Assembly (NCBI GenBank): GCA_023653095.1
Contig: JAMNXP010000003.1
Location: 1-39,502 of the forward strand
Direction: 5' to 3'
DNA: 39,502 nt
From: Bacteroidia bacterium
GTDB taxonomy: Bacteria > Bacteroidota > Bacteroidia > NS11-12g > UBA955
The translations under genes were made by a program, and so were the position numbers. Positions within the stretch are counted from its first letter, which is position 1, and each line of letters opens with the position of its first letter. Below are positions 148-30,597 of this stretch, one piece after another. The notes beneath the pieces are model-generated. The model made no database searches. It was not told the DNA's origin and saw only the letters and a list, made by a program, of their open reading frames with translations.

Positions 148-224
148 ACTCAACTCTAAACTCTAAACTCTCAACTCTAAACTCTAAACTCTAAACTCTA
201 AACTCAACTATAAACCCTTTACTC
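148..224. repeat. 7-bp tandem array, unit TCTAAAC
   Basis: About eight head-to-tail heptads lie at 148-203 with the consensus TCTAAAC. Six of the units are identical and the others carry one or two substitutions. Degenerate units continue to about 224. The array lies between the possible upstream gene end and the 3' end of the GH92 gene, whose stop is at 248. The 7-nt period is the same as in the other arrays of the window, although the unit sequence differs. No spacers are present, so it is not CRISPR. Confidence 0.9.
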
Positions 225-247
225 AAAGCAGCAGCGAAGCGTAAGTC

Positions 248-3200
248 CTACTTCTCCAACAACACCTCCGACACCTCCGGATTGATTACTACCTCATCAA
301 TAAAGATGAATGCATTGCCGTTATAATCATAACCTGGATGCCCGTAAGGAAGTTTGCCAAAGTTTGAAGCGCTAACCCGTATATAACGCGCTTGAACCTC
401 TTTTAAAAAGTGTTTCTTGCGACCCTTCTTTTGCATAACTCTCGGACCCAAAATAATAGGAACTACACCTGCATCTGGCCATCGTTGAGATGAATTAAAG
501 GTAAATTCGTTAAACATAAAGAACTCATTACCATCGATGGAATACTCCAATCGAATGTCCTTCGGAAGAAAAATCCAAGCACGCTCATCGGTTAGAAAGC
601 GAGCACCTAAGTATTTTATGGGTATGATCTTCTTCAAATCAATCACCGCTTCAAAATCTTGAGACTGATACCCTTGCCAGCCTCCGCTGCGCCACTGTTC
701 AGTGCCTAAAACGCCGTCAACCAAAGCATTGGGGCCACCGCCAGAATATTGCGGATTGTATTTTCCAGCAATTGATTTTACCTCAAAATTATTGGGTTTC
801 TCGGTGATATAGGTAGCCGTAAATTCGGTAAATTTCCCATTAGGATCACCTAAGCAAGCCCAAACCAATACCGAACCTTTCAAGTCTAAATTTACCGAAC
901 CTGTTGTACTTTTCACGTATTTATGAACCACTCTGCCCGGTAATTCCGGCTTGAATACAAAGGGCGAATCGATGTATCTCACAAAAACATGCAACTCAGA
1001 ACCCACAGCCTTATTGGTAAACGTTCTCACATTCACCCTATACAATGAATCCTTCTCCACCTGCTGCGGAGCAACAATGTCAACCCTCTCCCATCCCGAT
1101 TGAACTTCAGGAAGATCTCTTGATTTATTCACGGTATAACTAAATTTCAACCCGTCATTCATCAATATCCAATCATAGGGAATTTGATAATACACTCGCC
1201 CTGGGTCAACCTCTATTGAAACTGTTTCGCCAAACTTGCGTGTATAGTTGGTTAAAATATCCATGCCACTGACTCCTAAAGGGATGTCTGATTTTGTTTC
1301 CGATGGACGTTCAAACGTCAGCACCTCACCCATTTCGTTCCTTAACGTGATTCTAGGAAACAACGGATACCCCAACGAATACTCGTTGCTGCCAGGTGCC
1401 ACGGCATAAATACCCAATGCTGACATCACGTACCACGCGCTCATTTGTCCGCAATCTTCGTTTCCTATCAATCCGCTTGGGGTGTTTGAATAGAAATCTT
1501 TCATGATGCGCTTGATCAATTTCTGTGTTTTCTGGGGACTTCCAGCGTTGTTATACAAATAGGCCATATGATGGCTAGGCTCGTTTCCGTGAGCATATTG
1601 CCCAATCAATCCCGAAATATCAGCTTGTTCCCTGCCTGAAAGTCCCTCAGAGCCATAAAAAAGGCTGTCTAATTGGGCATGAAAGGCCTCTTTTCCGCCC
1701 ATCAGCGAAATCAATTGATCTATCTTATGCGGCACGTAAAACGAATACTGCCATGCATTTGCTTCGGTGTAGTGATTGTTAACTTCACCGGGTTTGTAGG
1801 GAGTTAAAAACTGCCCGTTTCGGCGAGGACGCATAGTCTTAGTTTCCGGGTCAAAAAGTCCCAAGAAACGTTTACTGCGATTCAAATAAATATTCTGGGC
1901 AAGCAATGAATCTGGCTGAAGCAAGCCTATGATTTTATAAACACACCAATCATCGTAGGCATACTCCAAGGTTTTGGATACTGATTCAGCCTCCTTAAGA
2001 ACATCTATATATCCCAAATTCGCGAAATACAGGGTCAATAATTCTCGCGCTATGGGAATTTGATACTTATAATCCTTTTCTTTTTCATCAGAACTATGTC
2101 GAATAGCCCGAATCAATTGGGCCGTATCAAAGTCAACCAATATGCCCTTTTGGATGGCTTCCAAAATCACCGGAACGCTGTGAAAACCGATCATGCAGTT
2201 GGTTTCTGAACTTCCCAACTCCCAAACAGGTAGTCTTCCACCGTCTTGATATTGCAAGAGCATACTTTGCACAAACTCACGGGTGCGGGTTCGGTGAGTG
2301 AGAGTCAACAAGGGATGCAGCGCCCGGTAGGTGTCCCACAACGAAAACACATGATACACATTATGTGTGGCTTGGTGAATTTTCTGATCTCTTCCCCTGT
2401 AGCGGAAATCAGCATCAGACGCCAACGACGGATGAATCAAACAGTGATACCAAGCGGTATAGAAAACATTCAACACAGAATCGTGCTGTTTTTCCTTCTT
2501 AAATGCCTCATGGTCTACTTGCAAATGGCTCATTTCTGCAGACCACAATTGACCCGTGCGTTCTTTACACAAATCAAACAACTCTTGGGCGTTTACTTGC
2601 CAATTCTTGGGTGCAAATTCATTAAAATCCTTTCTATGAATCATCCACGAATTCACCTGATTGGAATTTTGCTTTACTCCATCATAGTCGGTGAATGAAA
2701 GGACCGTTTTAACCAACAAAGGTCGTCTATTTGATTCTCCAAAATAAATGGCCACCTTGGTTTTTGCTTCGTTCATCACGTATTTCTGCCAAGGTCGGGA
2801 GAACTCCGTCTCAAAAAACACCCACTGATTTTCGGCCCAAGCCTTGCTTTGCCTGTGTCCGCGCAACTTTAAATTGCCGTCTTGCATTTCCAAAGAAAAA
2901 GACAGCAGGGCGTCGCGGTGTTCCAAATCCAATATGACCCATTCTTCTTTTCCCTGGGGATAACTGTACTTCTGAAACCCTCCATATTCTGACGCGGTCA
3001 ATTCAACCAAGGTTTTAGTTTCATTCAATAAAACTTTATAGTAACCAACTTCTGCTCGTTCATTAACATGATCAAAGCTTTGCTTGTATTTCTTGGAATC
3101 AAATTCTGGCGCATTCGCTGGCTGAAAAAGCACATCTCCCAAATCAGAGACTCCAGTTCCACTTAAATGGGTATGAGAAAAACCCAAAATAAAAGAGTCG

Positions 3201-3400
3201 TGATAATAATATCCGCCGCAGGCATCCCAAGAATTATCATTACGGGTATCTGGACTAAGCTGCACCATCCCAAAAGGCGTTACTGGGCCTGGAAACGTAT
3301 GTCCATGTCCACCGGTACCAACCATCGGATTGACAAATTCAATTTGGGCGTTTGCATCTATTAACAGAACGGAAGCTAGCGCGAAGAAAAACGACTTCAT
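248..3400 (-). CDS. GH92 family alpha-mannosidase with C-terminal discoidin-like domain
   Basis: The 1050-residue protein has a Sec signal peptide (residues 1-19, ending ANAQ). The Glyco_hydro_92 N-terminal sandwich follows at once with VNPMVGTGGHGHTFPG and GFSHTHLSGTG. The (alpha/alpha)6 catalytic domain includes HGNEPSHH, whose Glu607 matches the general-acid position of the family, and GNEDCGQMSAWY near residues 643-655. Residues about 880-1040 resemble an F5/8 type C (discoidin) carbohydrate-binding fold. GH92 enzymes are calcium-dependent exo-alpha-mannosidases, usually of 700-800 residues. The extra length here is the binding module. The protein is probably periplasmic or surface-located and trims mannose from glycans. 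No SusC/SusD pair adjoins it, so it is not in an obvious polysaccharide utilisation locus. Linkage specificity cannot be read from the sequence. Confidence 0.93.
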   Translation of the reverse strand: MKSFFFALASVLLIDANAQIEFVNPMVGTGGHGHTFPGPVTPFGMVQLSPDTRNDNSWDACGGYYYHDSFILGFSHTHLSGTGVSDLGDVLFQPANAPEFDSKKYKQSFDHVNERAEVGYYKVLLNETKTLVELTASEYGGFQKYSYPQGKEEWVILDLEHRDALLSFSLEMQDGNLKLRGHRQSKAWAENQWVFFETEFSRPWQKYVMNEAKTKVAIYFGESNRRPLLVKTVLSFTDYDGVKQNSNQVNSWMIHRKDFNEFAPKNWQVNAQELFDLCKERTGQLWSAEMSHLQVDHEAFKKEKQHDSVLNVFYTAWYHCLIHPSLASDADFRYRGRDQKIHQATHNVYHVFSLWDTYRALHPLLTLTHRTRTREFVQSMLLQYQDGGRLPVWELGSSETNCMIGFHSVPVILEAIQKGILVDFDTAQLIRAIRHSSDEKEKDYKYQIPIARELLTLYFANLGYIDVLKEAESVSKTLEYAYDDWCVYKIIGLLQPDSLLAQNIYLNRSKRFLGLFDPETKTMRPRRNGQFLTPYKPGEVNNHYTEANAWQYSFYVPHKIDQLISLMGGKEAFHAQLDSLFYGSEGLSGREQADISGLIGQYAHGNEPSHHMAYLYNNAGSPQKTQKLIKRIMKDFYSNTPSGLIGNEDCGQMSAWYVMSALGIYAVAPGSNEYSLGYPLFPRITLRNEMGEVLTFERPSETKSDIPLGVSGMDILTNYTRKFGETVSIEVDPGRVYYQIPYDWILMNDGLKFSYTVNKSRDLPEVQSGWERVDIVAPQQVEKDSLYRVNVRTFTNKAVGSELHVFVRYIDSPFVFKPELPGRVVHKYVKSTTGSVNLDLKGSVLVWACLGDPNGKFTEFTATYITEKPNNFEVKSIAGKYNPQYSGGGPNALVDGVLGTEQWRSGGWQGYQSQDFEAVIDLKKIIPIKYLGARFLTDERAWIFLPKDIRLEYSIDGNEFFMFNEFTFNSSQRWPDAGVVPIILGPRVMQKKGRKKHFLKEVQARYIRVSASNFGKLPYGHPGYDYNGNAFIFIDEVVINPEVSEVLLEK

Positions 3401-3411
3401 TCCTCAAAGAT

Positions 3412-3443
3412 AAAAAAAGAGGCCGCCCTTTTGAGGCGGCCTC
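3412..3443 (-). terminator. Rho-independent terminator after the OmpA-like gene
   Basis: A perfect 9-bp GC-rich stem, GAGGCCGCC paired with GGCGGCCTC around a 7-nt loop, is followed on the minus strand by a run of seven T. It lies between the OmpA-like gene stop (3465) and the GH92 start (3400). GH92 is therefore probably transcribed from its own start within the short gap. Confidence 0.9.
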
Positions 3444-3464
3444 CACAAAATATCAAAAAATCAA

Positions 3465-4106
3465 CTACTTACAATCGATACTAATAACCGCTCTGCGATC
3501 TAACGTTAAGCTTTGCGAGTGTGCAGGCTGCACCGTAGTGATGTTAATTTTAGCTTTAACACCCAAAACTTCAGTCAAAAACTTACGTACAGACTCAGCT
3601 CTGCGAGCTCTCAAACGGTCATTGGTTGCATCCGAACCGGTTTTATCTGCCGATGTAAAGACATTAATCTCATAGCTATAAGCTGAAGAAGCAATATCCA
3701 AAGCCGACTTCCAACGGAACATTTCTTGCATAGCGCTAGTAGAAAGCACTGATGAATTCACTTCAAAAAAGATGACTGCTGTGTTTGAACGTTCAAATTC
3801 AGCCTTAGATTCCTTTTCTAATGTTTCAATGGACTTTAATTTGTCTTCTAACTTTGCCACAACTGCTTGCGCTTTTGCATTGTTCTCATCCATGGCTTTC
3901 ACCTTCATATCTACCGTAGAAATTTTTGCCTCAACACCAGATAAATCTACTTGTGGAGGATTTTTCTTCAAGATATCTTGGGTTTGTTCAGCCACAAATC
4001 CAGACAATTTTGACTTCTCGTAAGCCTCTTTCGAGTTAATGCAACTGCTCATGGCAACAGCGCCAATCAAAGCAAAAGATACAGTTTTAAATGAATTTAA
4101 ATTCAT
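3465..4106 (-). CDS. OmpA-like lipoprotein
   Basis: The likely start is the ATG at 4106. It gives a lipoprotein signal peptide with the lipobox-like AMSSC (Cys21), and a -7 promoter element lies just upstream. Residues about 40-100 form a charged, helical, coiled-coil-like stretch. The C-terminal part resembles the OmpA peptidoglycan-binding domain: VIFFEVNSSVLSTSA near the start, then NDRLRARRAESVRKFL, then RRAVI near the end. The usual role is anchoring the outer membrane to peptidoglycan. The protein has 213 residues and no N-terminal beta-barrel, so it is a Pal-like or coiled-coil OmpA protein rather than a porin. It has a strong terminator downstream and appears to be a single-gene unit. 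Confidence 0.8.
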   Translation of the reverse strand: MNLNSFKTVSFALIGAVAMSSCINSKEAYEKSKLSGFVAEQTQDILKKNPPQVDLSGVEAKISTVDMKVKAMDENNAKAQAVVAKLEDKLKSIETLEKESKAEFERSNTAVIFFEVNSSVLSTSAMQEMFRWKSALDIASSAYSYEINVFTSADKTGSDATNDRLRARRAESVRKFLTEVLGVKAKINITTVQPAHSQSLTLDRRAVISIDCK

Positions 4107-4120
4107 AATTATAAGTCTTG

Positions 4121-4128
4121 CAAATATA
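4121..4128 (-). promoter_or_regulatory. Bacteroidota -7 promoter element for the OmpA-like gene
   Basis: The minus strand reads TATATTTG, an exact match to TAnnTTTG, 14 nt before the ATG at 4106. No well-spaced -33 TTTG is evident. The element supports 4106 over the in-frame ATG at 4145, which lies upstream of it. Confidence 0.6.
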
Positions 4129-4211
4129 ACGTACACACTCACCAAAAAGTTCCCCCATCATCGACTAAAAACCAACTTCTAACTGATTGTCATGTTTTTT
4201 GGACAAATTGA

Positions 4212-4309
4212 CCCGTGATCGGTAGTCGGTGATCGGTAGCAAGAAGTCAGATTTAGGCTAACCACTGAAGTTTGAACACCGATCACCGATAACCGATCAC
4301 CCATCACTT
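4212..4309. repeat. 7-bp degenerate array with inverted arms (TCGGTGA / ATCACCG)
   Basis: Heptads TCGGTAG and TCGGTGA occupy 4219-4239. Their reverse-complement counterparts ATCACCG and ATAACCG occupy 4275-4302. The degenerate centre keeps the same 7-nt phase, giving roughly 13 units. Read on the minus strand, the array starts at the TGA stop of the aldolase gene (4304-4306). It can fold into a long imperfect hairpin but has no T-run. It lies between two genes transcribed in the same direction. Confidence 0.85.
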
Positions 4310-5308
4310 TTTCAACTGCAACGCCACATCAACAATCATATCTTCTTGTCCGCCAACCATCTTGCGATTTCCCAACTCTTCCAATATATCGCGGGTGTCT
4401 ACCCCATAGATCTGGCTAGCGCGCTCGGCGTGAAGCAAGAAACTGGAATATACTCCAGCATATCCCAAACTCAAAGTTTCACGATCAACTCGAACCGGAC
4501 GGGTTTGCAAAGGGCGAATCAAGTCATCGGCGGCATCCATTAGGGCGTATAAATCACACCCGTGTTTTGCATCCATACGATTCATAACAGCAATCAATAC
4601 TTCGAGAGGTGCGTTTCCTGCGCCGGCTCCCATACCTGCCAACGAAGCATCTAAACGAGTAGCACCCTCTTGAAGGGCCACCACAGTATTTGCAACCCCT
4701 AACGATAAGTTGTGGTGGCAATGAATACCTAATTCTGTTTCAGGCATCAAAACTGATTTGAAGGCTTGAATGCGATCTCGCACGCCGTCCATGGTCAAAG
4801 CGCCTGCACTGTCAGTAACATAAACACAATGAGCGCCATAACTTTCCATCAATTTGGCCTGTTCAGCAAGTTTTTCAGGAGTGTTCATGTGAGCCATCAT
4901 CAAAAATCCAGCAACATCCATCCCCAAAGAACGGGCAGCTGCAATGTGTTGTGCAGAAATATCTGCTTCCGTGCAATGGGTTGCTATTCGAACAGATTTG
5001 ACCCCCAAATCACTAGCCTTCTTCAAATTTTCAATGGTGCCTATTCCCGGGAGGAGCAACGTAGTGAGTTTGGCATTTTTCAAGACTTTCGAAACGGCTC
5101 CAATCCACTCCCAATCGGTGTGAGCGCCAAATCCGTAGTTGAAGCTTCCGCCGGAAAGTCCGTCGCCGTGAGCCACTTCAATGGCATCAACACCCGCTTC
5201 ATCTAGCGATTTAGCAATTTCTACGGCCTTATCAACACTGTATTGATGTCTGATGGCGTGTTGTCCGTCACGCAGAGTGACATCTTGAATGTAAAATCTC
5301 TTGGTCAT
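4304..5308 (-). CDS. 4-hydroxy-2-oxovalerate aldolase
   Basis: This enzyme splits 4-hydroxy-2-oxovalerate into pyruvate and acetaldehyde, the penultimate step of meta-cleavage catabolism. The ATG at 5308 overlaps the stop of the dehydrogenase gene as ATGA, which implies translational coupling and gives 334 residues. The N-terminus has the DmpG/HOA-aldolase signature TLRDGQHA, with Arg13, Asp14 and His17 matching catalytic residues of DmpG. The metal-binding HCHHN motif is at residues 196-200. In this family the aldolase binds the acetaldehyde dehydrogenase and channels the aldehyde to it, and the gene order here fits that complex. The C-terminus ([14 protein letters not shown]) looks complete, although slightly shorter than some homologues. 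Confidence 0.95.
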
Positions 5309-6240
5309 TTCATTAAGTATTGAGCCCAACGTTCGGCCGTTGCTTTTGCGGCACTCGTCATAATATCAAGGTTCCCTGCATATTCTGGAAGGTAATGTCC
5401 TGCACCCACCACTCTCAGAAATATAGACGTTTTAAGTCCCCAACGATGTCCAAGTCCTTCAATAAACACAGGATTGCTTTCAGGAATATCCTCAAATTGC
5501 ACCTCCTGATGCAATTGGTAGCCTGGCACGTATTTCTGCACCTCTGTTACCATTTCATTAATGCTTTTTCTGATAGCATCACGATCTGCAAATTCACTGA
5601 GTGTAAACACCGTATCGCGCATCACCAAAGGCGGTTCTGCGGGATTCAAGACTATGATGGCCTTTCCGCGCTCGGCTCCGCCCACTTTTTCTATTCCGTG
5701 GGACGTGGTTTCAGTGAATTCATCAATGTTCGCTCGCGTACCTGGGCCGGCCGATTTTGACGCAATGGATGCCACTATTTCCCCGTAATGCACCTTCGCC
5801 ACCCTGTAGACAGCTGCTACCATGGGAATGGTTGCTTGTCCCCCACAAGTAACCATGTTCACATTATCAACCGATTCTAAGTCAAGATTCTCAAAATTTA
5901 CAGGTGGAATCACGAACGGACCAATAGCCGCAGGTGTGAGGTCAATCATTTTCTTACCTGGAAACTGTCTGATGACAGCGGCGTTTGATATGTGCGCTTT
6001 TGCTGAGGTGGCATCGAAAACAAAATCAATTTCTCCCCATTGAGGCATATTTATGAGACCTTGAATACCTTCGTGTGTGGTTGGAACGCCCATTCTCTGA
6101 GCACGCGCAAGTCCATCAGAAGCTGGATCAATTCCCACCATAGCACCCATTTCTAAAATATCAGAGTATCTCATGACCTTAATCATAAGGTCTGTCCCAA
6201 TATTTCCGGGACCAATAATAGCTACCTTAAATTTTCGCAT
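5305..6240 (-). CDS. Acetaldehyde dehydrogenase (acylating)
   Basis: It oxidises acetaldehyde to acetyl-CoA with NAD+ and CoA, the last step of the meta-cleavage route. The dinucleotide-binding motif [10 protein letters not shown] is near the N-terminus. The catalytic cysteine is Cys132 in VTCGGQAT, the same position as in DmpF. The likely start is the ATG at 6240, which shares one base with the TGA of the hydratase gene (TGATG). A TTG one codon earlier is the alternative. The protein has 311 residues, the usual length. It sits between the hydratase and aldolase genes, with short overlaps on both sides, as a tight operon. Confidence 0.95.
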
Positions 6241-7028: not shown

Positions 7029-7043
7029 TATTAAATTTCGAAT

Positions 7044-7084: not shown

Positions 7085-7091
7085 CACCTTA

Positions 7092-7946: not shown

Positions 7947-9152
7947 ATGAAAAAAATTCATTCACTTTTAACAGTAGCAGCTTTATTCGGCTCTACCATG
8001 TTATTCAACGCTTGTGGCGACGACAACAACGGTGGTGACAACAACAACAATACTTCTGGTGAAGTTATTGTAACTTCTAACGTAACGGCAAGTACAACTT
8101 GGACAAAAGACAAGGTTTACATCTTAGCAGGACGTATTGCTGTAACTGCAGGAAACACTTTAACTATTGAAGCTGGTACCGTTATCAAGGGTCAGGCTGG
8201 TTCTGGTGCAAACGCTACAGCTTTAATTATTGCACGTGGTGCAAAGATCTTGGCTGAAGGTACACCTACAATGCCTATCATCTTCACTTCAGTTGCTGAT
8301 GAAATCAAATCTGGTGAAATCGCATCTCCTAACATGGACCCTAACGTAGACGGTCTTTGGGGTGGTTTATTGATTATGGGTAAAGCACCTGCTTCATTGA
8401 GCGGAGACGTTGTTGAGGCTGCAATTGAAGGTATTCCTCCAACTGATGCTAACGGTTTATACGGTGGAACAGATGCAAATGATAATTCTGGTGTATTGAA
8501 ATATATCTCTATTCGTCACGGTGGTGCTAATATTGGAGAAGGTAACGAGATCAACGGACTTACTTTAGGAGGTGTTGGTGCAGGTACTGTAATTGAAAAT
8601 ATTGAAGTTATTGCTAACCAAGACGACGGAGTTGAGTTCTTCGGTGGTACTGTAAACGCTAAAAACGTATTGGTTTGGAATGCTGGTGACGACGCTATCG
8701 ATACTGACCAAGCTTGGTCTGGTACTTTGGATGGATTTGCAGTTATCTGTGGTGACAACACTGACCACGCTTTAGAAATTGACGGTCCAGAAGGTTCTGC
8801 TAATGCTGGTCACAACGTGAAAAACGGTTGGGTTAAAGGTTCGGCGGCGGCTGAAATGGGCAACTGGAGATCTAATGCTCAAGGTAACTTTTCTTCTATC
8901 TACTTCTTCAACTTTGATGCTGGTATGAAAGACGGTCGTGGTGACTTAGATTTGGACGCAACTTCTGCTCCTAACAATGGAACTACTTTGAACTTCGACA
9001 AATTAGAAGTTAAAACTGACTCAACCAATCTTTCAAAAATCTTTTTGGACGGTGTAGCTGCAAAAGCAACTAAAGTTACAACCAACACTGTAGGAAGCGT
9101 AGTAGCATTTGCTAGTTGGACTTGGGCTGATAAAGCGGGTGCATTGAAATAA
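7947..9152 (+). CDS. Surface lipoprotein with parallel beta-helix fold
   Basis: The 401-residue protein begins with a lipoprotein signal peptide and lipobox FNAC. The cysteine is followed by GDDNN and an Asn/Asp/Gly-rich linker. Acidic residues right after the cysteine are a known surface-export signal for Bacteroidota lipoproteins. The remainder has right-handed beta-helix features: LTIEAGTVIKG, an ALIIARGAKILAEGT coil followed by PIIF, and acidic coils such as NQDDGVEFFGG and AGDDAIDTD. Codon use is strongly biased (GGT, AAC, GAC, CGT), more than in its neighbours, which suggests high expression. It lies just upstream of a TonB-dependent receptor and probably forms a surface uptake pair with it. 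The ligand is unknown. Confidence 0.8.
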   Translation: MKKIHSLLTVAALFGSTMLFNACGDDNNGGDNNNNTSGEVIVTSNVTASTTWTKDKVYILAGRIAVTAGNTLTIEAGTVIKGQAGSGANATALIIARGAKILAEGTPTMPIIFTSVADEIKSGEIASPNMDPNVDGLWGGLLIMGKAPASLSGDVVEAAIEGIPPTDANGLYGGTDANDNSGVLKYISIRHGGANIGEGNEINGLTLGGVGAGTVIENIEVIANQDDGVEFFGGTVNAKNVLVWNAGDDAIDTDQAWSGTLDGFAVICGDNTDHALEIDGPEGSANAGHNVKNGWVKGSAAAEMGNWRSNAQGNFSSIYFFNFDAGMKDGRGDLDLDATSAPNNGTTLNFDKLEVKTDSTNLSKIFLDGVAAKATKVTTNTVGSVVAFASWTWADKAGALK

Positions 9153-9199
9153 TTTTTTTGAAACTAAATTTTAATCATATTCTCTAAAACACTCTCGGA

Positions 9200-9235
9200 A
9201 AGGAGGTCATTGAACGGCCTCCTTCTCGAGTTTTT
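9200..9235 (+). terminator. Terminator or attenuating hairpin between lipoprotein and TonB receptor genes
   Basis: A 9-bp stem, AAGGAGGTC paired with GGCCTCCTT around a 7-nt loop, is followed after a short CTCGAG by five T. It lies 47 nt past the lipoprotein stop and 20 nt before the receptor start. Partial read-through would give more lipoprotein than receptor transcript. Confidence 0.75.
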
Positions 9236-9255
9236 GCGATCAACGTGTTAAAAGA

Positions 9256-12156
9256 ATGAAAAACGTAATAAAAATAATCGGAATCATTGCCTCTTTAGGC
9301 GCAAACTACCTCTCTGCTCAGACAGGTACAATACGTGGTAAAGTAGTTGACGAGACTACGTCAAAAGCCATAAAAGGAGCTACTGTTAGTATCTCAGAAT
9401 CAACCAAGACAAACACTGACCTCGACGGAAAATTCGAGCTCACCGTTCCAGTTGGTATCCATACACTTACCGCTGATTTTGAAGCCTACAATTCTGTAAG
9501 CATCAGCGAAATTCAAGTGAATGAAAACCAGATTTTTGTAATAGAAAACGACATTAAACTCTCTCCAGCGGTTGAAGGCATTGGCCAAGTAAAGGTCTCT
9601 GTTAAACGCATGAGCAACACCGAAGAAGCTCTTCTTTCTGCTAAGAAAATTGCACCTAATATGATTGACGGTATATCTAGCGCCGGATTCAAACGCATTG
9701 GCGATGGTGATGCAGCTTCTGCTATGTCTCGCGTTACTGGTGTATCTGTGGAAGGTGGTAAATACGTTTACGTGCGTGGACTTGGTGATCGTTATACCAA
9801 AACCACCTTGAACGGAATGGACATACCTGGTCTAGATCCAGACAGAAATACCATTCAGATGGACCTATTCCCAACAAGCGTCATTGATAACATCGTGGTA
9901 TCAAAAACCTTTACTGCTGATCTTCCCGCTGACTTTACTGGAGGTGTAGTAGATATCGGAACTAAAGACTTCCCAGATAAAAAGAACTGGAATTTTAGTT
10001 TAGGATTAGGTTATAACCCCAATATGAATTTCAAAAGCAACTACCTTACTTACAAAGGCAGTGGCACTGATTTCTTGGGATTTGATAACGGCCAACGCGA
10101 CATCCCTACTCAAGGAGTAGACAATATTCCTACTTATACAGATTTTATTGGAAGTCCTAACGGAACAAAAGGAACAGAATTTCAAAGAATCACCAGAGCA
10201 TTCAATCCAACCATGGGACCTAGCCAAAAAACCAGTTTGATGAATGTGAATATGGGAGCGTCATACTCTAACACCCGTAAAATATCAAAGCGCTATTCAT
10301 TAGGATATCAAGCCTCTATGACTTACCGCAACGAAACAGAATTATACGAAGATGCTGAATACAATATGTATGCGAAAGACATTAATTACGAAGTTACCGA
10401 ATTGACTCCTTTGGAACGTCAAAAAGGTACTTTTGGAACAAACAACGTCCTTTTGGGTGCTTTGGGAACCGTTGCAATAAAATCAGAAAATAATAAAGTA
10501 AAATTAAACCTTTTACATATACAAAACGGAGAATCTAAAGCTGGTGAGTTCATCTTTTTAAACACCAACTTAGGTGCTACTTTCGAAGCAAAACAATACA
10601 ACTTAGATTACAACCAACGTTCCTTAACCAATATGCTGATTGCTGGAACTCACTCTAGAAATAAGGGCAAGTGGCAAATTGATTGGAAAATATCACCTAC
10701 TCGTTCAGCAATCAAAGATCCAGACGTAAGATTTACCCGTTTCCGTATTCCAGATAATAACATTGGAACTGAAGTAGGAAAACCAGAGAGAATTTGGAGA
10801 AACCTCGTTGAATATAATATTTCCAATCGCATTGATGTGGCTCGTAACTACAGATTAATGGGAAAGAAAGCGCATTTAAAATTTGGGGCTGCATACACTT
10901 TCAAACACCGCGACTTTAATATTCAAAACTTCCAAATCACCGTAGGTAACATTAAATTCACAGGTGATCCCAACGAAATTTTCAACGAAGAAAACCTAGT
11001 TAGCTCAACTCAAACCAACGGAGTTCGTTACGACGCAATGTTCATTCCCAACAATCCCAACGAGTTCAAAGCTATGGTGAACCACACCTCCGTATATGGC
11101 TCAAACGATTGGCAACTCACTCCTCAATTAAAGGCTGTTGTTGGACTTAGAGCCGAGCATTATTTACAGCTGTACACTGGTATAAGTCAAACCAAAAACC
11201 CTCTTACTGGTAGACCTTTTGAACTTGACAATGAAGCAGTAATGAATGATTTCAACCTTTTCCCAACGGCTAATATGATGTACAATATCAGCAAAAAAGC
11301 CAATTTAAGGATTTCTTATGCACATACCATTGCTCGTCCATCATTGAAAGAACTTTCTTATGCTGAAATTCTTGACCCAATTACAGGTCGTACATTTATT
11401 GGAGGTAAATACACCGAAAACACCAATATCAACGGACAGGATATTCAACTTTGGGATGGTAACTTAAAGTCTACAAACATCAATAACTTTGACATTCGCT
11501 GGGAAAAATTCGAAAAGCGTGGAGATATGATATCAGCTGGTGTATTCTTCAAAACTTTACGTAATCCTATTGAAATTGTTCAGTTTTTGGCTGATGCTGG
11601 TAGTTTCCAACCCCGCAACGTAGGTAACGCAACTATTCTTGGATTAGAACTTGAAATGCGTAAAAATTTAGAAGGACTTTCACCTTCATTGAAAAACTTC
11701 TCATTCAATACTAACCTTACCCTGACAGATTCTCGTATCTCAATCACTGAAACCGAATTCTTATCGCGCGACCTAACAAAGCGTAAAGGACAAACCATTG
11801 AAAGAACCCGTGATATGGCAGGTCAAGCTCCCTACATTGTGAATGTTGGATTATCGCACATTACAAAAGACAAGAGCTTTGAATCTGGTTTATTTTACAA
11901 TGTACAAGGCCCTACTCTTCAGTTTGTTGGATTCAACAACAAAACTGACGTATACTCGGTTCCTTTCCACAGCTTAAACTTCAACGCTACTTATAAATTT
12001 GGCGAGAAAGACCGCATGAATTTAGGCTTCAAGGTGACCAATATCTTAAACGACAAACGTGAACAAATCTTCACTGGCTTTAATGCTACTGATCAAATTT
12101 TCACCCGTTTAAGTCCGGGCCGTAATTTCCAATTGAAATTCTCTTACACACTGTAA
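9256..12156 (+). CDS. TonB-dependent outer-membrane receptor
   Basis: The 966-residue protein has a signal peptide (residues 1-21, ending LSAQ). A CarboxypepD_reg-like domain follows (GTIRGKVVDETTSKAIKGAT, about 25-105). The plug domain carries YVYVRGLGDRYTKTTLNG and PGLDPDRNTIQMDLFP, then a long beta-barrel runs to the C-terminal aromatic residue in FSYTL. It imports a ligand across the outer membrane using TonB energy. It has the SusC-like N-terminal extension, but its neighbour is a beta-helix lipoprotein rather than a SusD. The barrel gives no substrate clue. Its position directly before ppk1 raises the idea of a phosphorus-containing substrate, but a terminator lies between them, so this is weak. 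Confidence 0.92.
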   Translation: MKNVIKIIGIIASLGANYLSAQTGTIRGKVVDETTSKAIKGATVSISESTKTNTDLDGKFELTVPVGIHTLTADFEAYNSVSISEIQVNENQIFVIENDIKLSPAVEGIGQVKVSVKRMSNTEEALLSAKKIAPNMIDGISSAGFKRIGDGDAASAMSRVTGVSVEGGKYVYVRGLGDRYTKTTLNGMDIPGLDPDRNTIQMDLFPTSVIDNIVVSKTFTADLPADFTGGVVDIGTKDFPDKKNWNFSLGLGYNPNMNFKSNYLTYKGSGTDFLGFDNGQRDIPTQGVDNIPTYTDFIGSPNGTKGTEFQRITRAFNPTMGPSQKTSLMNVNMGASYSNTRKISKRYSLGYQASMTYRNETELYEDAEYNMYAKDINYEVTELTPLERQKGTFGTNNVLLGALGTVAIKSENNKVKLNLLHIQNGESKAGEFIFLNTNLGATFEAKQYNLDYNQRSLTNMLIAGTHSRNKGKWQIDWKISPTRSAIKDPDVRFTRFRIPDNNIGTEVGKPERIWRNLVEYNISNRIDVARNYRLMGKKAHLKFGAAYTFKHRDFNIQNFQITVGNIKFTGDPNEIFNEENLVSSTQTNGVRYDAMFIPNNPNEFKAMVNHTSVYGSNDWQLTPQLKAVVGLRAEHYLQLYTGISQTKNPLTGRPFELDNEAVMNDFNLFPTANMMYNISKKANLRISYAHTIARPSLKELSYAEILDPITGRTFIGGKYTENTNINGQDIQLWDGNLKSTNINNFDIRWEKFEKRGDMISAGVFFKTLRNPIEIVQFLADAGSFQPRNVGNATILGLELEMRKNLEGLSPSLKNFSFNTNLTLTDSRISITETEFLSRDLTKRKGQTIERTRDMAGQAPYIVNVGLSHITKDKSFESGLFYNVQGPTLQFVGFNNKTDVYSVPFHSLNFNATYKFGEKDRMNLGFKVTNILNDKREQIFTGFNATDQIFTRLSPGRNFQLKFSYTL

Positions 12157-12230: not shown

Positions 12231-12265
12231 CGGCCAGCCAACAGCCGATAACCGAAAACCGAATT
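12231..12265. repeat. Short 7-bp array ending at the ppk1 start
   Basis: Five heptads in one phase include CCGATAA, CCGAAAA and CCGAATT. The array ends two bases before the ATG of ppk1 at 12268. It therefore lies in the leader or spans the translation initiation region. The units resemble the ACCGAT-type units of the arrays at 4212, 28932 and 30521. Confidence 0.7.
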
Positions 12266-25100: not shown

Positions 25101-25335
25101 TTCCGCTAACTCCTTGTAACTTCTCCTCTACTATGGCTACAACCCCATCTTCTAATTCTTCAGGTGACGCACCAGGATAAACCAAATTTACATTGATGAT
25201 TCGGCTGTCTACCAAAGGAAAAAAACTCGCTGTCATCTTTGAATACGCCACAAATCCAGACATGGTCAAAATTACCAATAAGGTATTGACCGAAACCGGA
25301 TATTTTATAAAATATGTGATCAGCTTTTTCATCAT
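22165..25335 (-). CDS. RND-family (HAE1/AcrB-like) inner-membrane efflux pump
   Basis: The 1056-residue proton-driven transporter has twelve expected membrane helices and two large periplasmic loops. The N-terminus ITYFIKYPVSVNTLL is typical, as is the GASPEELEDGVV segment of the first porter loop. The paired acidic residues Asp398-Asp399 in TM4 (GILVDDGIVISENI), needed for proton relay, are present. The second half has GIIVNDSLVLIDKMN. It works with the adaptor and TolC-like protein to expel drugs, bile-like compounds or lipids. The substrate cannot be predicted. The first ATG overlaps the adaptor stop as ATGA. Confidence 0.95.
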   Translation of the reverse strand: MMKKLITYFIKYPVSVNTLLVILTMSGFVAYSKMTASFFPLVDSRIINVNLVYPGASPEELEDGVVAIVEEKLQGVSGIERVTSKSKENLAIVTVEVEKGYSTSQALEDVQNAVNSINNFPTDLERPLVFLRENINFTINYGISGNEISLSALKSYARRVEKDLLKFEGISKVELSGFPQEEIEISFDDASLRRHNLTLEQAGLLIKSSNIDITGGTVKTPQEELLIRSRNKGYHAQELENLVLITQSNGSLVRLKDVATVKDKWAEDPNRIFIDGKPAVEVLVQSTDREDLLKNAAFVREYFAEFQEQNPQLKATLIRDQSETLNERKQLLIDNGIIGMILVLVLLSMFLNIRIAFWVAMGIPVAFLGMFILAYWSGVTINVISLFGMIVVVGILVDDGIVISENIYSHYEQGKSAIRAAIDGTVEVMPAVFSSVVTTMVAFSFFFLVDGRAGDFFSELAFVVIATLFVSLVEALMFLPSHMAHSKALTAEGNNKNVFERFSDKLMSFMRDRLYSPVLRFALGHKWFAFLFMVGLVIITVGGAKGGWIKFTFFPVLERNDVPIELTMPSGTREEITNERLVRIEEAVKRVNSQLSSKRTDGKEVVTKIERKVGPSASQGSVNAILLPSEFRGISSMDLAALFRKELGSMDDAEKLTFGQASAFGKPVSVTLLSSNTKELDAAKSELREKMSAIPELKDVIESIQQGRKEINLKLTDKAYSLGFNEAQLLAQVRRGYFGYEAQRLQRGKDEVKVWVRYNEEQRNSVQRMEDMRIRTTDGRDVPLKELAQISIKRGVVDIDHLDGQRQVTIEAELSNAMVSAPEIISRIKAELMPPLLAKYPSVSPLFEGQNREAAKTQKSSKFALPFVLLSILAIITLTFRSLSQALVIMVFLVPFSLIGVAWGHVIHGQQMSILSFLGVVALIGIIVNDSLVLIDKMNGFLKEGMPFKDAVYQAGYSRFRAIFLTSATTVAGLAPLILEKSFQAQFLIPMAISVAYGIALATILTLIMLPVFLSAWNNIKRFGWFVWDAGEIPSAESVEPAIIELRSELEELKND

Positions 25336-26468
25336 TTACCCGCCATTTGTGGCACAACTTTCATTCCTTCAAATCCACCAGAAATTTGCTGACTCACTAA
25401 AATTGTGCCCGCTTCCAACCCCGACACTAAGGCTTTCTGCCCTTTATATCCATGAACAATCACGGGTTTAACAACCAAGGTAGAATCTTTATCATTTACT
25501 AAAAATACGGTTTGTTCATTGCTCAATAGGTTCCTTGCAATTTCAATGCTACCATTAACCTCTGCTGCGGCAATATTCATTTCAAAAAATTGCCCCTCTT
25601 TCAATTCGGGGTGATTAATTTGAATGATTACGCTCACCATCTGAGTTTGCAAATCAACTACTTCATTAAATCTGAGAATTCGCCCTAAATACGCTTTGCC
25701 TTCAGAAGTTAATTGTACGCTTTGTCCTTCTCTCAGATACTTAAGCTGACTAGGAACCACAGAAGCTTCCAATTCAAAAACACCTGGCTGCACGAATGTT
25801 CCAATTTTTTGCCCTGCTCTCACTAATGCGCCTGGTTCAATATTGGTCTCTACCAAAACCCCTAAGTAAGGTGCGGCTATTCTGTATTTGGCTAATCTCT
25901 CTTCCAAACTTTTAATGTTATAATAATTAGTTAAAACACTTCTAGCTGATAAAAACTTCTTCAATGAAGTTGAATTTACCACAGGCAATTCAGGCAATGA
26001 TTTCTCAACTTGAATTTTCTGGATGAATGCCTCCCAAGAAGCAAATTCACTAGAATGATCTATTTGAATGTCGGGCATCACTTGAGAAACCAAACCTAAA
26101 AACGCTGAACGTTGTGATTTCAACTGTCCTTCAAATTCCTTGGAATCAATAACAGCAATCGGTGAACCTTCTCCTATACGAGCCCCTTTCCTAAAGTTTG
26201 CATTCTGCAACACCCCAGTAACTTCTGCATAAACCTCAAATCTATTTTGTGCTTTCAACCTTCCTGAAGCTACAACATTGAGCCTATTGCTTTGCAAAAT
26301 CACCTCACTCACTTCCACCGTCTTGGTTCTGAACGAAGTCAAAGGAGCCTTTGTCTCTTTGGGAGCAGACAACTTTTTAGAGATAAACACACTCAACAAG
26401 ATAGCTGCAATCCCCAAAACCACTGATCTCACCAAGGTCTTGTTACCGCGAAGTTCTAATTTCATCAT
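25332..26468 (-). CDS. RND periplasmic adaptor (membrane fusion protein)
   Basis: The 378-residue protein has one N-terminal membrane helix (residues about 14-31). A biotinyl-lipoyl-like barrel follows (VTGVLQNANFRKGARIGEGS), then a helical hairpin region, then a second lipoyl half (RIAAPYLGVLVETNIEPGALV) and beta-barrel and membrane-proximal domains ending with GLEAGTILVSQQISGG. It links the RND pump to the TolC-like channel. It is the first gene of the operon. Two adjacent ATGs (26468 and 26465) are possible starts. A -7 element lies 24 nt upstream. Confidence 0.93.
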   Translation of the reverse strand: MMKLELRGNKTLVRSVVLGIAAILLSVFISKKLSAPKETKAPLTSFRTKTVEVSEVILQSNRLNVVASGRLKAQNRFEVYAEVTGVLQNANFRKGARIGEGSPIAVIDSKEFEGQLKSQRSAFLGLVSQVMPDIQIDHSSEFASWEAFIQKIQVEKSLPELPVVNSTSLKKFLSARSVLTNYYNIKSLEERLAKYRIAAPYLGVLVETNIEPGALVRAGQKIGTFVQPGVFELEASVVPSQLKYLREGQSVQLTSEGKAYLGRILRFNEVVDLQTQMVSVIIQINHPELKEGQFFEMNIAAAEVNGSIEIARNLLSNEQTVFLVNDKDSTLVVKPVIVHGYKGQKALVSGLEAGTILVSQQISGGFEGMKVVPQMAGK

Positions 26469-26491
26469 TTAAACAGAGATTTAATAATCAA

Positions 26492-26499
26492 CAAATTTA
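26492..26499 (-). promoter_or_regulatory. -7 promoter element for the efflux operon
   Basis: The minus strand reads TAAATTTG, an exact TAnnTTTG match, with a predicted transcript start near 26485 and a leader of about 20 nt. No correctly spaced -33 box is evident. No TetR/MarR gene is adjacent. Confidence 0.55.
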
Positions 26500-26542
26500 C
26501 GAACAAATAAATCGTCTGCCGGCCAGTTTTTTACCAATAAGG

Positions 26543-26582
26543 ACTTTTGTCACACACAAGTACTTTATATTTATTTTATAAA
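26543..26582. promoter_or_regulatory. Two dyads in the katG / efflux divergent region
   Basis: ACTTTTGT and ACACAAGT (26543-26561) form a near-perfect inverted repeat around a 3-nt centre. TTTATA and TATAAA (26564-26582) form an AT-rich dyad around 7 nt. The pair lies between two divergent promoters, 44 nt upstream of the katG -7 element. It could be an operator for an oxidative-stress regulator. The AT-rich dyad only loosely resembles a PerR box and has a different spacing. Confidence 0.35.
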
Positions 26583-26625
26583 TGAACTATTGTTTCTATT
26601 TATGATTTTTCGCGCAAAAATTATG

Positions 26626-26633
26626 TAAATTTG
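26626..26633 (+). promoter_or_regulatory. -7 promoter element for katG
   Basis: TAAATTTG matches TAnnTTTG exactly. It would give a leader of about 83 nt before the ATG at 26723, and that leader contains a heptad array. Confidence 0.55.
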
Positions 26634-26641
26634 TCTGTTGA

Positions 26642-28927
<2,286 letters not shown>

Positions 28928-28931
28928 TTGG

Positions 28932-29078
28932 TTTTCGGTGATCGGTGATCGGTGATCGGTGATCAGTTATCAGCAGTCAGCAGTCAGCGGTCTGCGGTCT
29001 GTGGTCAGCCGTCAGCTGATAGCTGATTGCTGATAGCTGATATCTGACATCTGAAAACCGATCACTGATCACCGTTAT
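28932..29078. repeat. Long 7-bp array that drifts into its own reverse complement
   Basis: Twenty-one consecutive heptads stay in one phase over 147 bp. The units start as TGATCGG (three identical), then change step by step through TGATCAG, CAGTCAG, CGGTCTG and CTGATAG. They end as CTGATCA and CCGATCA-type units, which are the reverse complement of the first ones. The whole can fold into a long imperfect hairpin. The array begins 4 nt after the katG stop and ends 56 nt before the HMG-CoA synthase start. Confidence 0.95.
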
Positions 29079-29134
29079 AATTCGTGTCAATAAGACACTT
29101 ATGAACCTTATAATCTTTTATTTGTTCTAAAGGA

Positions 29135-30520
29135 ATGAATTCATCTACCTCCGTCGGTATTGATGCCTTCGGATTTTACATCCCAAAGCACTTTCTTCCT
29201 ATAGAAAAACTAGCACTAAAAAGAAATATTCCATCCGAAAAGTTGACCCTTGGATTGGGATTAAAAAGCATGGCCGTTTGTGAAAAGCATGAAACGACTG
29301 ATTTCATGGCAGCACAATCAATTTTAGATCTTTGCAATGAATGGGAACAAAAAACAGGTCAAAAATTTGACTTCAACGACGTAGATAAGATCTATCTAGG
29401 TACAGAAAGTAGCATTGATAGTGCAAAACCCAGTATTACCTACGCAATTGAGCATTTAAAGGCCAATTTGCATTGTGATTTGACGCACATCGACTTTCTA
29501 GATATGACCTTTGCCTGTATTGGTGGAATTGATGCCATGTTGATTTGTGTAGATTATGTAAGACTTAATCCGTCTAAAAAATGCATCGTCGTTGTTTCAG
29601 ATAACGCCATTTATGACTTGGAAACCGGAGGCGAATACACTCAAGGTGCAGGAGCCATAGCCGTTCTCATTACTCATAAACCTTCCATTTTAGAAATTGA
29701 TTCATCTACAGTTGGAGTAAGTACCGCCAACGACTTTGACTTTTATAAACCGTTAAGATCCTTTTCTAAGGAACAACTTCTGCGCGAAGCTGCCCACAGG
29801 TTGGGTTGTTCGGATGACAAAATCTCACAAGCAATATTTGATTTAAACCATGAAAAAGTCCCCTTCAAAGAGGGCTCTCTAGAAGGAGTAATATCCTCTT
29901 TTTGGAATCTTCCGGAGGACACTATTCACGTCCATCGAAAACAACCCGTATACGATGGTAAACATTCAAACGATTGTTATGAAGATCGCATAGCTCAAGC
30001 ATTGAATAGATTTTCAAAGAAACACTCAACACCCATATCTCAATTTTCCACTTGGATTTTCCATCTTCCATATGCTTTTCAAGGGCGCAGAACTGCATCA
30101 AAAAATTGGTGGGAACACATTGCAAAGCACCAACCTGAACTCGTTCAAAAAATCAATCAAGAGATAAATTCATTGCCAGAAAGCGCGGAATGGTGGAAAT
30201 CTCTTGCGAAGTGTACTGAATATAAAAAATTCGTACAATCAACAATTGCCCGCACTGAGACCCTTTCATCTCAATTAGGAAATCTGTACACTGGATCTAT
30301 TTTTATGGCTGCTGTAAGTGCACTTATTTCCGATGATTTCACCTCTGAAAATCCCATTTTATTCCTCAGCTACGGATCAGGCTCAAAATCCAAAGTTTTT
30401 GCAGCTCAACCCCTGAAATCCATTATTCCTGAAACACTCAAAAAACAAATCCTCTCCAAGCTTGAAGCAAGGTCTGAAATTAACTTTGAAACCTACGAGC
30501 AATGGCATAGAATGCAATAA
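29135..30520 (+). CDS. Hydroxymethylglutaryl-CoA synthase
   Basis: It condenses acetyl-CoA with acetoacetyl-CoA to HMG-CoA, the entry to the mevalonate route of isoprenoid synthesis used by many Flavobacteriia. The 461-residue thiolase-fold protein starts with [13 protein letters not shown]. The catalytic residues fit Glu91 (LGTESS), Cys128 ([10 protein letters not shown]) and His310 ([13 protein letters not shown]). [19 protein letters not shown] and [16 protein letters not shown] are family signatures. The flanking sequence at Cys128 differs slightly from the common HACYG form, but the triad is intact. It stands alone between two heptad arrays. The array at 30521 starts directly at its stop codon. 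Confidence 0.92.
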
Positions 30521-30597
30521 ACAGCGGTCAGCTATCAGCGGTCAGCTATCAGCGGTCAGCGATAAGCTGAAAGCCGAAAACCGAAAGCCGATTACTA
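30521..30597. repeat. 7-bp array starting at the HMG-CoA synthase stop codon
   Basis: Eleven heptads in one phase follow the TAA directly. TCAGCGG and TCAGCTA alternate, then drift to TAAGCTG, AAAGCCG and AAAACCG. The GGTCAGC-type and GCTGA/GCCGA-type halves are partly complementary. The array runs into the -7 element of the next gene (30596-30603). Confidence 0.9.

What the first reader, a model, noticed from the sequence alone, without database searches (positions are those of the whole stretch)
148..30597. A family of 7-nt-period intergenic arrays with different units but one common rule
Six intergenic regions (148-224, 4212-4309, 12231-12265, 26672-26713, 28932-29078, 30521-30597) carry tandem heptads. 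The units differ between sites (TCTAAAC, TCGGTGA, CCGATAA, AGACCAA, TGATCGG, TCAGCTA) and drift by one or two substitutions along an array. The phase of 7 is kept. Heptanucleotide short tandem repeats (STRR) are known from heterocystous cyanobacteria, but I know of no named equivalent in Bacteroidota. Three heptads equal 21 bp, two turns of B-DNA, so a DNA-binding or structural role is possible. Slippage alone would not easily explain why only 7-nt units occur.
Basis: partly seen in the sequence, partly recalled or inferred. Interest (0 to 1): 0.8.

Follow-up and report, generated by a model that had tools for sequence, protein, structure and literature searches.

The report
Heptad repeat arrays at gene ends
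In this Bacteroidota genome most longer gaps between genes that point at each other carry 7-base repeats, and a sister species has such repeats at several of the same places with the same left-right pattern but mostly different repeat words, which suggests that the pattern rather than the word is what is kept.

Summary
Observation confirmed: six lag-7 arrays in the window, 0.03 expected. Not local: 85 lag-7 segments in 1.22 Mb, at most 4 at any other lag from 2 to 13. The six 'different' units are about four families (TCGGTGA and TGATCGG are one unit in two frames).

(2) Polarity: G/T-rich first, A/C-rich last, on both strands (convergent 34 of 35). (3) At orthologous 3' ends arrays recur (8 both, 4 one only, 93 neither) while units overlap by about 1%. 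(4) Units are shared genome-wide. (5) A congener has 10-nt arrays of similar layout.

Heptads near stop codons are known from Xanthomonas and Nostoc (PMC4692102), TAACTGA repeats from five Bacteroidetes (PMC4679880): a new variant of a known kind. Best reading: two-sided transcription-boundary elements made by slippage and copying; the function is inferred, and neutral repeat turnover is a nearly equal rival.

The parts
143..224 (.). array 1, (AACTCTA)n, A/C-rich on +, so G/T-rich on the sense strand downstream of the stop of the GH92 gene (248-3400, minus)
   Evidence: at the orthologous 3' end G002 (L143 1935-1981) has ACCCGAC-type heptads
4212..4309 (.). array 2, two halves, (GTGATCG)n and (ATCACCG)n, G/T then A/C, reaching the stop of the HMGL-like/DmpG gene (4304, minus)
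   Evidence: the same gap in G002 holds heptads over L143 5935-6257 (ATCGGGT, then CTCGTCT, then GGACTTT), with the promoter-side flank similar
12231..12265 (.). array 3, weak (CCGATAA / CCGAAAA), A/C-rich, ending 2-4 nt before the ATG of polyphosphate kinase (12268)
   Evidence: no array before PPK in G002, which lacks genes 7947-12156 at this place
26672..26713 (.). array 4, (GACCAAA)n, A/C-rich, just before the likely ATG (26723, by eye) of the peroxidase-family gene
   Evidence: the listed ORF starts at TTG 26660, so the ORF list puts this array inside the gene
28930..29078 (.). array 5, TCGGTGA x4 > TCAGCNN > NNGCTGA > ATCACCG, from about 3 nt after the peroxidase stop; G/T first, A/C last
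   Evidence: G002 has GGGTA-type > ACCCGAA-type heptads after the orthologous gene (L143 17312-17521)
30521..30597 (.). array 6, (TCAGCGG TCAGCTA)n > AAGCCGA, from the stop of the HMG-CoA-synthase-like gene (30520) to about 11 nt before the YjdM gene (30609)
29135..30520 (+). HMG-CoA-synthase-like gene flanked by arrays 5 and 6; no match in G002, where one heptad region lies between the flanking genes

Best explanation
The arrays are one genome-wide class of intergenic heptad-repeat elements that sit at gene 3' ends and keep an architecture rather than a sequence. Shown: period 7; start at or within a few nt of a stop codon; often stop-to-stop filling of convergent gaps; G/T-rich heptads first and A/C-rich heptads last on both strands; recurrence at the same places in two related species while the repeat unit is mostly replaced; a dominant set of units in each genome. 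Inferred: arrays arise and turn over by slipped-strand duplication of neighbouring heptads and by copying of pieces between dispersed arrays; they are kept because they act as two-sided transcription boundaries. RNA polymerase leaving a gene on either side first makes G/U-rich RNA (pausing, stable hybrid), then a C-rich, G-poor stretch on which Rho can load, so antisense read-through into the facing gene is cut off in either direction without an intrinsic hairpin-plus-U terminator. Because composition, length and register suffice, the unit itself is free to drift. About 0.4 for the boundary function; about 0.9 for the descriptive part.
For: Context: arrays in 27 of 49 convergent, 22 of 180 tandem and 8 of 106 divergent gaps of at least 60 nt (58 of 70 arrays assigned to gaps; Fisher 2e-9 and 2e-10). 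In tandem gaps the median distance to the upstream stop is 2 nt against 55.5 nt to the next start. Polarity: left third more G+T than right third in 34 of 35 convergent (one tie set aside), 23 of 28 tandem and 7 of 9 divergent gaps with arrays, both species together; gaps without arrays show no such trend, convergent ones if anything the reverse. Recurrence: among 105 orthologous 3' ends with gaps of at least 40 nt in both species, 8 array/array (from 7 gaps), 4 discordant, 93 neither, Fisher 5e-9 taking ends as independent, mean unit overlap 0.014. Fewer terminator-like hairpins at array ends: G000 convergent 9 of 54 against 24 of 44, tandem 1 of 22 against 50 of 158; G002 convergent 2 of 16 against 12 of 18, tandem 1 of 5 against 25 of 75. 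Last 45 nt of G000 arrays: A 0.33, C 0.35, G 0.17, T 0.15; C>G 78-nt windows are commoner downstream of array ends. Rho over the curated cut-off in both species. In Xanthomonas citri transcripts start or stop at G4-type heptad repeats more often than at control repeats (PMC4692102, section 15 read).
Against: No RNA data. The terminator contrast weakens when gaps are matched for length (100-350 nt): G000 convergent 5 of 44 against 5 of 12 (p 0.03), tandem 1 of 17 against 22 of 71 (p 0.04); G002 convergent 7 of 24 against 4 of 12 (p 1.0), tandem 0 of 6 against 22 of 65 (p 0.17). A gap filled by an array also has little room for a hairpin. The published Rho-site model wants C every 11-13 nt (PMC6407284, passages), not 7, and has the C-rich stretch before the stop point, whereas here it comes last. 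Fold swap test: an array's own halves pair no better than halves of different arrays (own better in 15 of 47 and 5 of 13). Shared position could be plain descent. Outside this species pair the polarity rule is weak: 11 of 17 segments in other PPK loci (table). Other congeners show few or no lag-7 arrays in small samples and must terminate otherwise.
Confidence: 0.42

Rival explanations
1. Neutral turnover: heptads expand by polymerase slippage (7 nt being favoured by the polymerase) and spread by gene conversion; they survive only where no promoter or coding constraint stands in the way, i.e. behind stop codons and between convergent genes. Position is shared by descent, units are replaced by drift, no function.
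For: Adjacent heptads are most alike and similarity falls with distance (0.75, 0.69, 0.65, 0.59). Divergent gaps are avoided (8 of 106). Units are shared genome-wide (within-genome overlap 0.146 and 0.066 against 0.025 between species), and in G000 44 array pairs share non-periodic 16-mers against a control mean of 2.05 (maximum 6), in G002 3 against 0.55, so pieces seem to be copied, at least in G000. Heptamers were reported as the commonest long simple repeats in most bacterial genomes of a 2007 study, with a polymerase-footprint idea (Mrazek et al. 2007 as cited in PMC4679880 and PMC4692102). SbcD, part of the nuclease that cuts DNA hairpins (recalled), is over its cut-off in 0 of 19 genomes of this order.
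Against: It gives no reason for the G/T-first, A/C-last polarity, which holds in unit families that share almost no sequence. MutS is over its cut-off in G000 and G002. SbcD is missing in array-poor congeners too, so its absence does not discriminate.
Confidence: 0.4
2. Bidirectional hairpin terminators: the two halves of each array pair in the transcript and form a long stem.
For: Several arrays are quasi-palindromic (e.g. window 28930-29078). Arrays fold somewhat better than heptad-shuffled versions (34 of 47, median z -1.2; 10 of 13, median z -1.6).
Against: Own halves are not better partners than halves of other arrays (own better in 15 of 47 and 5 of 13). Terminator-like hairpin plus T-run in a minority of array ends. 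Hairpins alone do not fix the G/T-before-A/C direction.
Confidence: 0.1
3. A mobile or enzyme-templated element: REP/RAYT-type dispersal, or repeats written by a reverse transcriptase.
For: Composite pieces recur beside some G000 arrays (GCGGCNNNGCCGC-type hairpins at 5 places, 17-nt repeats).
Against: No Y1 transposase match in any of the 12 genus genomes searched, G000 and G002 included. One RVT_1 match in G000 (C11), none in the 99% complete G002. Arrays often fill gaps right up to the stop codons.
Confidence: 0.04
4. A DNA-binding or structural role based on 21 bp = two helical turns.
For: Regular spacing.
Against: No super-period of 21; units mostly unrelated between species at the same sites; a congener with period 10.
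Confidence: 0.04

Closest known systems
GGGAATC / GGGGA(C/T)T heptad repeats of Xanthomonas and Nostoc (Rehm et al. 2015, PMC4692102; passages incl. parts of the abstract, section 15 and the discussion read)
   Same: Heptads; intergenic; within 50 bp of stop codons on the coding strand or upstream of ORFs on the non-coding strand; rare between divergent genes; pairs in convergent orientation (70 in Xcc, 75 in Xac); mostly between the same genes in two species, with extensive length and sequence variation.
   Different: There one G-quadruplex-capable repeat type per genome is studied. Here many units, the main ones of the window's genome without GGG, often in one order (TCGGTGA > TCAGCNN > AAAGACC or AACTCTA), and at orthologous sites the unit is mostly replaced. 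They report a preference for gaps between aligned ORFs; here the strongest enrichment is between convergent genes.
TAACTGA direct repeats of Beggiatoaceae, cyanobacteria and five Bacteroidetes (MacGregor 2015, PMC4679880; abstract and passages seen)
   Same: Intergenic heptamer direct repeats; other heptamer repeats in the same gaps in Gramella forsetii and A. sublithincola.
   Different: One unit, in the main genome mostly just upstream of start codons; here many units, mostly just downstream of stop codons.
STRR heptanucleotide repeats of heterocystous cyanobacteria (recalled; PMC4692102 mentions three tandem heptanucleotides in Calothrix)
   Same: Several heptanucleotide families in one genome.
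   Different: Different phylum; polarity or orthologous sites were not discussed in the passages seen.
Tandem repeats of Borg elements (PMC9879509, search listing only)
   Same: Rapidly evolving tandem repeats.
   Different: Archaeal extrachromosomal elements; nothing on a fixed 7-nt period in what was seen.
Rho-dependent terminators (PMC6407284 and PMC12350095, passages)
   Same: C-rich, G-poor stretch downstream of genes; Rho gene present.
   Different: C spacing 11-13 nt in the published model; here a 7-nt register and a preceding G/T-rich half.

Membership tests
Heptanucleotide long simple sequence repeats (general class) | tandem units of 7 nt in excess over other periods | tested here: met
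   85 lag-7 segments in 1.22 Mb, at most 4 at any other lag 2-13; 6 against 0.03 expected in the window
GGGAATC/GGGGAYT repeats (Rehm 2015) | G-tract of three or more per unit (G-quadruplex capable) | tested here: not met
   main G000 unit classes ACCGATC (28 of 56 arrays), ACGGCTG (14), AAAGACC (12), ACCGCTG (11) have no GGG or CCC; some G002 classes do, e.g. ACCCGGT
GGGAATC/GGGGAYT repeats (Rehm 2015) | close to stop codons, rare between divergent genes | tested here: met
   27/49 convergent, 22/180 tandem, 8/106 divergent; median 2 nt from the upstream stop in tandem gaps
GGGAATC/GGGGAYT repeats (Rehm 2015) | inverted pairs in convergent orientation | tested here: met
   G/T-first, A/C-last polarity; tested as base composition, not as pairs of one unit
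TAACTGA repeats (MacGregor 2015) | unit TAACTGA | tested here: not met
   its class is not among the 40 of 41 unit classes listed for G000, nor the 38 of G002
TAACTGA repeats (MacGregor 2015) | just upstream of start codons | tested here: not met
   17 of 22 tandem-gap arrays lie closer to the stop; window arrays 3 and 4 do abut starts
REP/BIME with RAYT | Y1 transposase (PF01797) in the genome | tested here: not met
   no match in the 12 genus genomes searched, G000 and G002 included; G000 is only 75% complete, G002 99%
Intrinsic terminator | stable hairpin followed by a T-run | tested here: inconclusive
   terminator-like in a minority of convergent array ends: 9 of 54 (G000), 2 of 16 (G002); 5 of 44 and 7 of 24 in the length-matched set, the latter not different from array-free gaps
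Rho-dependent terminator | C>G stretch of about 78 nt in the transcript | tested here: met
   commoner downstream of array ends than of others; partly a direct consequence of the polarity
Rho-dependent terminator | regularly spaced C every 11-13 nt | not tested
   array register is 7; only C-minus-G windows were scored
Rho-dependent terminator | bicyclomycin-sensitive termination | not testable with these tools
   needs RNA from a cultured strain
Rfam RNA families | match at gathering score | tested here: not met
   0 matches in the window

The most novel reading that the evidence does not exclude
A class of genetic element whose conserved information is only its register and strand polarity: 7-nt (in a congener 10-nt) tandem units, G/T-rich after each stop codon and A/C-rich at the far end, working as two-sided transcription boundaries, while the unit word is replaced across the whole genome as species diverge, as satellite DNA does in eukaryotes.
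Probability: 0.3. Interest if true: 0.85.

Novelty: new variant of a known kind. Interest (0 to 1): 0.6.

Why it matters
According to PMC4692102 the heptamer excess in bacteria was noted in 2007 and a function remains to be found. Here two related genomes have arrays at several of the same gene ends, with the same period and polarity, while sharing almost none of the repeat words. That separates 'what is kept' (place, period, polarity) from 'what is free' (the word), gives a test between slippage and selection, and makes a concrete prediction (a two-way transcription boundary) for a feature that simple ORF calling can misread as coding. Genome-wide unit replacement would be a bacterial case of concerted evolution of dispersed satellites.

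Tried and rejected
Hairpin pairing tailored within each array: not supported by the half-swap test. 21-bp super-period: none. RAYT/REP mobility and reverse-transcriptase writing: no matching enzyme pattern. Mismatch-repair loss: MutS1 model matched in 19 of 19 genomes, over the cut-off in 16, G000 and G002 among them. SbcCD loss: SbcD over its cut-off in 0 of 19 (3 weak matches; 8 of 14 controls over it), so permissive at best and not discriminating. Sense-strand mutation bias from transcription: would make both ends G/T-rich on the sense strand, but the start-side ends in tandem gaps are A/C-rich. Local spread between neighbours: unit overlap within 15 kb is 0.175 against 0.145 farther apart in G000 (47 near pairs), but 0.117 against 0.064 in G002 (20 near pairs), so some local effect in G002. 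Rfam: no match. Polarity rule in 45 other PPK loci: of 19 lag-7 segments 2 lie more than 70 nt from a gene end; of the other 17, by my reading of the table, 11 fit the rule and 6 do not, two of the 17 being near 0.5, so its reach outside this genus is unproven. Regional gap: no array in C1 between about 49 and 330 kb, not explained.

Rows set aside: of 70 merged G000 arrays 58 were assigned to gaps of at least 60 nt, of 23 in G002 (590 kb) 15; the rest lie at stretch ends, in shorter gaps or inside called ORFs (some calls false, e.g. window 26681 inside the TTG-start ORF). In one search, 252 of 357 orthologous 3' ends were left out because a gap was under 40 nt in at least one species (among them 3 with an array in one species). 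Of the 4 discordant ends one is window array 1 itself, missed in G000 by the 40-nt limit, and one lies in a G000 gap whose array was assigned to the facing gene. Two of the 8 array/array ends are the two sides of one gap. One convergent tie was set aside. In one search the pair C3 49762/49957 is one gap, so an artefact, and many pairs rest on the 17-nt repeat. In one search only arrays of 80-320 nt were folded (47 and 13). L143 was first taken for a third species; it is G002's own assembly (same contig number and coordinates, a 200-nt stretch identical). The 20 stretches were chosen because they were rich in hits. In one search two contigs of G001 read N and gave spurious counts, and the output was cut. 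Gene calls are my own hexamer-scored ORFs.
Full report
WHAT WAS CHECKED. The window is contig C4:1-39502 of a 2.04-Mb, 75% complete genome (G000). The closest named relative by polyphosphate kinase is a MAG labelled Chitinophaga pinensis isolate MsE-30jul19-177 (89%), followed mostly by Chitinophagaceae, Flavipsychrobacter and unnamed Bacteroidetes at about 61-63%, so I take the order to be Chitinophagales (inference from labels); the species label of that MAG is the record's own. Its assembly is the congener called G002 here (PPK at the same contig number and coordinates, a 200-nt stretch identical). G000 and G002 share 308 reciprocal best hits at a median 92.6% in the first set and 357 above 60% identity at a median 93.4% in the larger set.

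The window has exactly six local lag-7 segments, against a mean of 0.03 and a maximum of 1 in 200 Markov resamples. Over 1.22 Mb of the genome there are 85 segments at lag 7, with the multiples 14, 21 and 28 following, and at most 4 at any other lag from 2 to 13. In the first 400 kb of C1 it is 11 against 0. G002 has 24 at lag 7 and at most 1 at any other lag from 2 to 13 in 590 kb.

ANATOMY. Arrays are built from a small vocabulary, often in one order: TCGGTGA, then TCAGC plus two variable bases, then AAAGACC and/or AACTCTA, or the reverse complement (by eye in the 54 arrays listed; not counted). The pattern TCAGCNN x3 occurs 232 times in G000 and its reversed control never. 4 of 57 genomes searched, G000 included, have it; in G002 the reversed control hits more often (21 against 12), because that genome has other heptads. 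Unit similarity falls steadily with distance inside G000 arrays (0.75 at lag 7 to 0.55 at lag 35). Some arrays carry GC hairpins and a 17-nt repeat with a GCGAAGC motif beside them.

PLACE. Arrays lie in 27 of 49 convergent, 22 of 180 tandem and 8 of 106 divergent gaps of at least 60 nt. In convergent gaps they cover a median 85% of the gap, and 43 of 54 array edges lie within 20 nt of the stop codon or overlap it (by up to 22 nt). In tandem gaps the median distance to the upstream stop is 2 nt. Among gaps of 100-350 nt, 22 of 28 convergent gaps in G000 and 12 of 18 in G002 carry one, against 17 of 88 and 6 of 71 tandem, and 5 of 62 and 4 of 46 divergent.

POLARITY. On the written strand arrays begin G/T-rich and end A/C-rich, so the same is true of the other strand. 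Left third above right third: 34 of 35 convergent, 10 of 12 and 13 of 16 tandem, 7 of 9 divergent (the last not significant, p 0.18), both species together. By array of at least 60 bp it is 48 of 56 in G000 and 17 of 18 in G002, and there is no such trend in gaps without arrays. In the window array 2 runs from 0.59 to 0.28 G+T, array 5 from 0.65 to 0.45, array 6 from 0.48 to 0.32; arrays 1, 3 and 4 are A/C-rich throughout and face a minus-strand stop or a plus-strand start.

CONSERVED PLACE, REPLACED UNIT. Of 105 orthologous 3' ends with gaps of at least 40 nt in both species, 8 have arrays in both (from 7 gaps), 1 only in G000, 3 only in G002 and 93 in neither (Fisher 5e-9, ends taken as independent); the unit profiles of the eight pairs overlap by 0.014 on average, near unrelated pairs (0.006). 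One of the eight (C1|514 with C17|10) does show TCAGC and CCAAAGA words in both species. In the window the GH92 3' end, the OmpA/HMGL-like gap and the peroxidase 3' end have arrays in both species with different words; in the second the promoter-side flank stays similar up to the array. The peroxidase-yjdM gap holds one heptad region in G002; in G000 an HMG-CoA-synthase-like gene stands there with an array on each side.

GENOME-WIDE SHARING OF UNITS. Unit overlap is 0.146 between arrays within G000, 0.066 within G002 and 0.025 between them. Distance matters little in G000 (0.175 within 15 kb, 0.145 beyond) and more in G002 (0.117 against 0.064, 20 near pairs). The ACCGATC class is tandem in 28 of 56 G000 arrays. 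Some arrays of the other species' type come in neighbouring groups (G000 C3 at 55-56 kb; G002 C25 and C17), others singly (G000 C1 at 8 kb, G002 C10), which would fit exchange of segments (inference). In G000 44 array pairs share non-periodic 16-mers against 2.05 (maximum 6) in controls, in G002 3 against 0.55 (maximum 2).

OTHER CONGENERS. G007 has no lag-7 but 11 lag-10 segments in 200 kb at threshold 14, made of GTTTATAAGG-type units. Several begin within 2-20 nt after a stop codon and are G/T-rich there (0.58-0.65), some before starts are A/C-rich (127986-128020 is a counter-example), with hairpins between. In smaller samples (threshold 12) G013 has one 9-nt and one 10-nt segment, G005 and G008 one lag-7 segment each, and G001, G006, G010, G011 and G013 none at lag 7 in 14-60 kb of readable sequence. 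In 31 further held loci of relatives (126 kb) there is none at lag 7. Among 45 other PPK loci two labelled Saprospiraceae (L169, L170) have 6 and 5 lag-7 segments.

HOW IT MAY WORK. The polarity is the feature that slippage and descent do not explain: it recurs in unit families almost without common sequence. A polymerase entering the gap from either side first transcribes G/U-rich RNA and then a C-rich, G-poor stretch (last 45 nt of G000 arrays: A 0.33, C 0.35, G 0.17, T 0.15). 3' ends with arrays have fewer hairpin-plus-T terminators, though after length matching the contrast is modest in G000 and not significant in G002. The pairing of the two halves is not tailored. Rho is present. I therefore favour a two-sided transcription boundary, Rho-assisted, at about 0.4, with neutral slippage plus gene conversion at about the same weight. 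No RNA evidence was available.

PRIOR WORK. Rehm et al. 2015 (PMC4692102; passages, section 15 and discussion read) describe G-quadruplex heptads in Xanthomonas and Nostoc with much the same placement, inverted pairs in convergent orientation, and mostly the same gene pairs in two species with extensive length and sequence variation; they identified no function. MacGregor 2015 (PMC4679880; abstract and passages) describes TAACTGA repeats, five Bacteroidetes included. 'Satellites in the prokaryote world' (PMC6749651, passages) notes heptamer-derived satellites. Of ten library searches, seven were on such repeats and three on Rho sites. In the listings and passages seen I met no description of unit replacement at orthologous sites or of a polarity rule independent of the unit; most subscription papers are not in that library.

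Noticed in passing
G007 C1 (L079, L082): A congener with 10-nt instead of 7-nt arrays (GTTTATAAGG) of similar layout: G/T-rich after several stops, hairpins, A/C-rich before some starts.
   Followed up: partly
L012 17724, L013 1610, L015 8187 and 11928, L023 3516 (G000); L063 1428, L064 6252 (G002): A 17-nt tandem repeat like AGTCCTAGCGAAGCGTG in both species, beside heptad arrays except at L064 6252; it contains GCGAAGC (recalled as a very stable DNA mini-hairpin).
   Followed up: partly
window 29135-30520: HMG-CoA-synthase-like gene present in G000, without match in G002, standing between two heptad arrays; arrays may be sites of gene gain or loss.
   Followed up: partly
window 7947-12156: Two genes (one a TonB-dependent receptor) present in G000 but not at this place in G002; the rest of G002 was not searched for them.
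   Followed up: no
G000, G002 and 17 relatives: SbcD (TIGR00619) is over its cut-off in 0 of 19 genomes of this order, while 8 of 14 control genomes have it.
   Followed up: no
window 36540-36700: Several GGGTATA / TACCCT words in inverted arrangement before a small helix-turn-helix-like gene (about 36673-36879) followed by two further ORFs; looks like an autoregulated HipB/HipA-type operon (by eye, not searched).
   Followed up: no
window 38740-38810: An inverted repeat around ATGCATATTGCTAA...TTAGCAATACAAATATGCAT before the gene at 38852 (by eye).
   Followed up: no
G000 C1 about 49-330 kb: No heptad array in about 280 kb, while C3 (60 kb held) has 12; regional clustering not explained.
   Followed up: no
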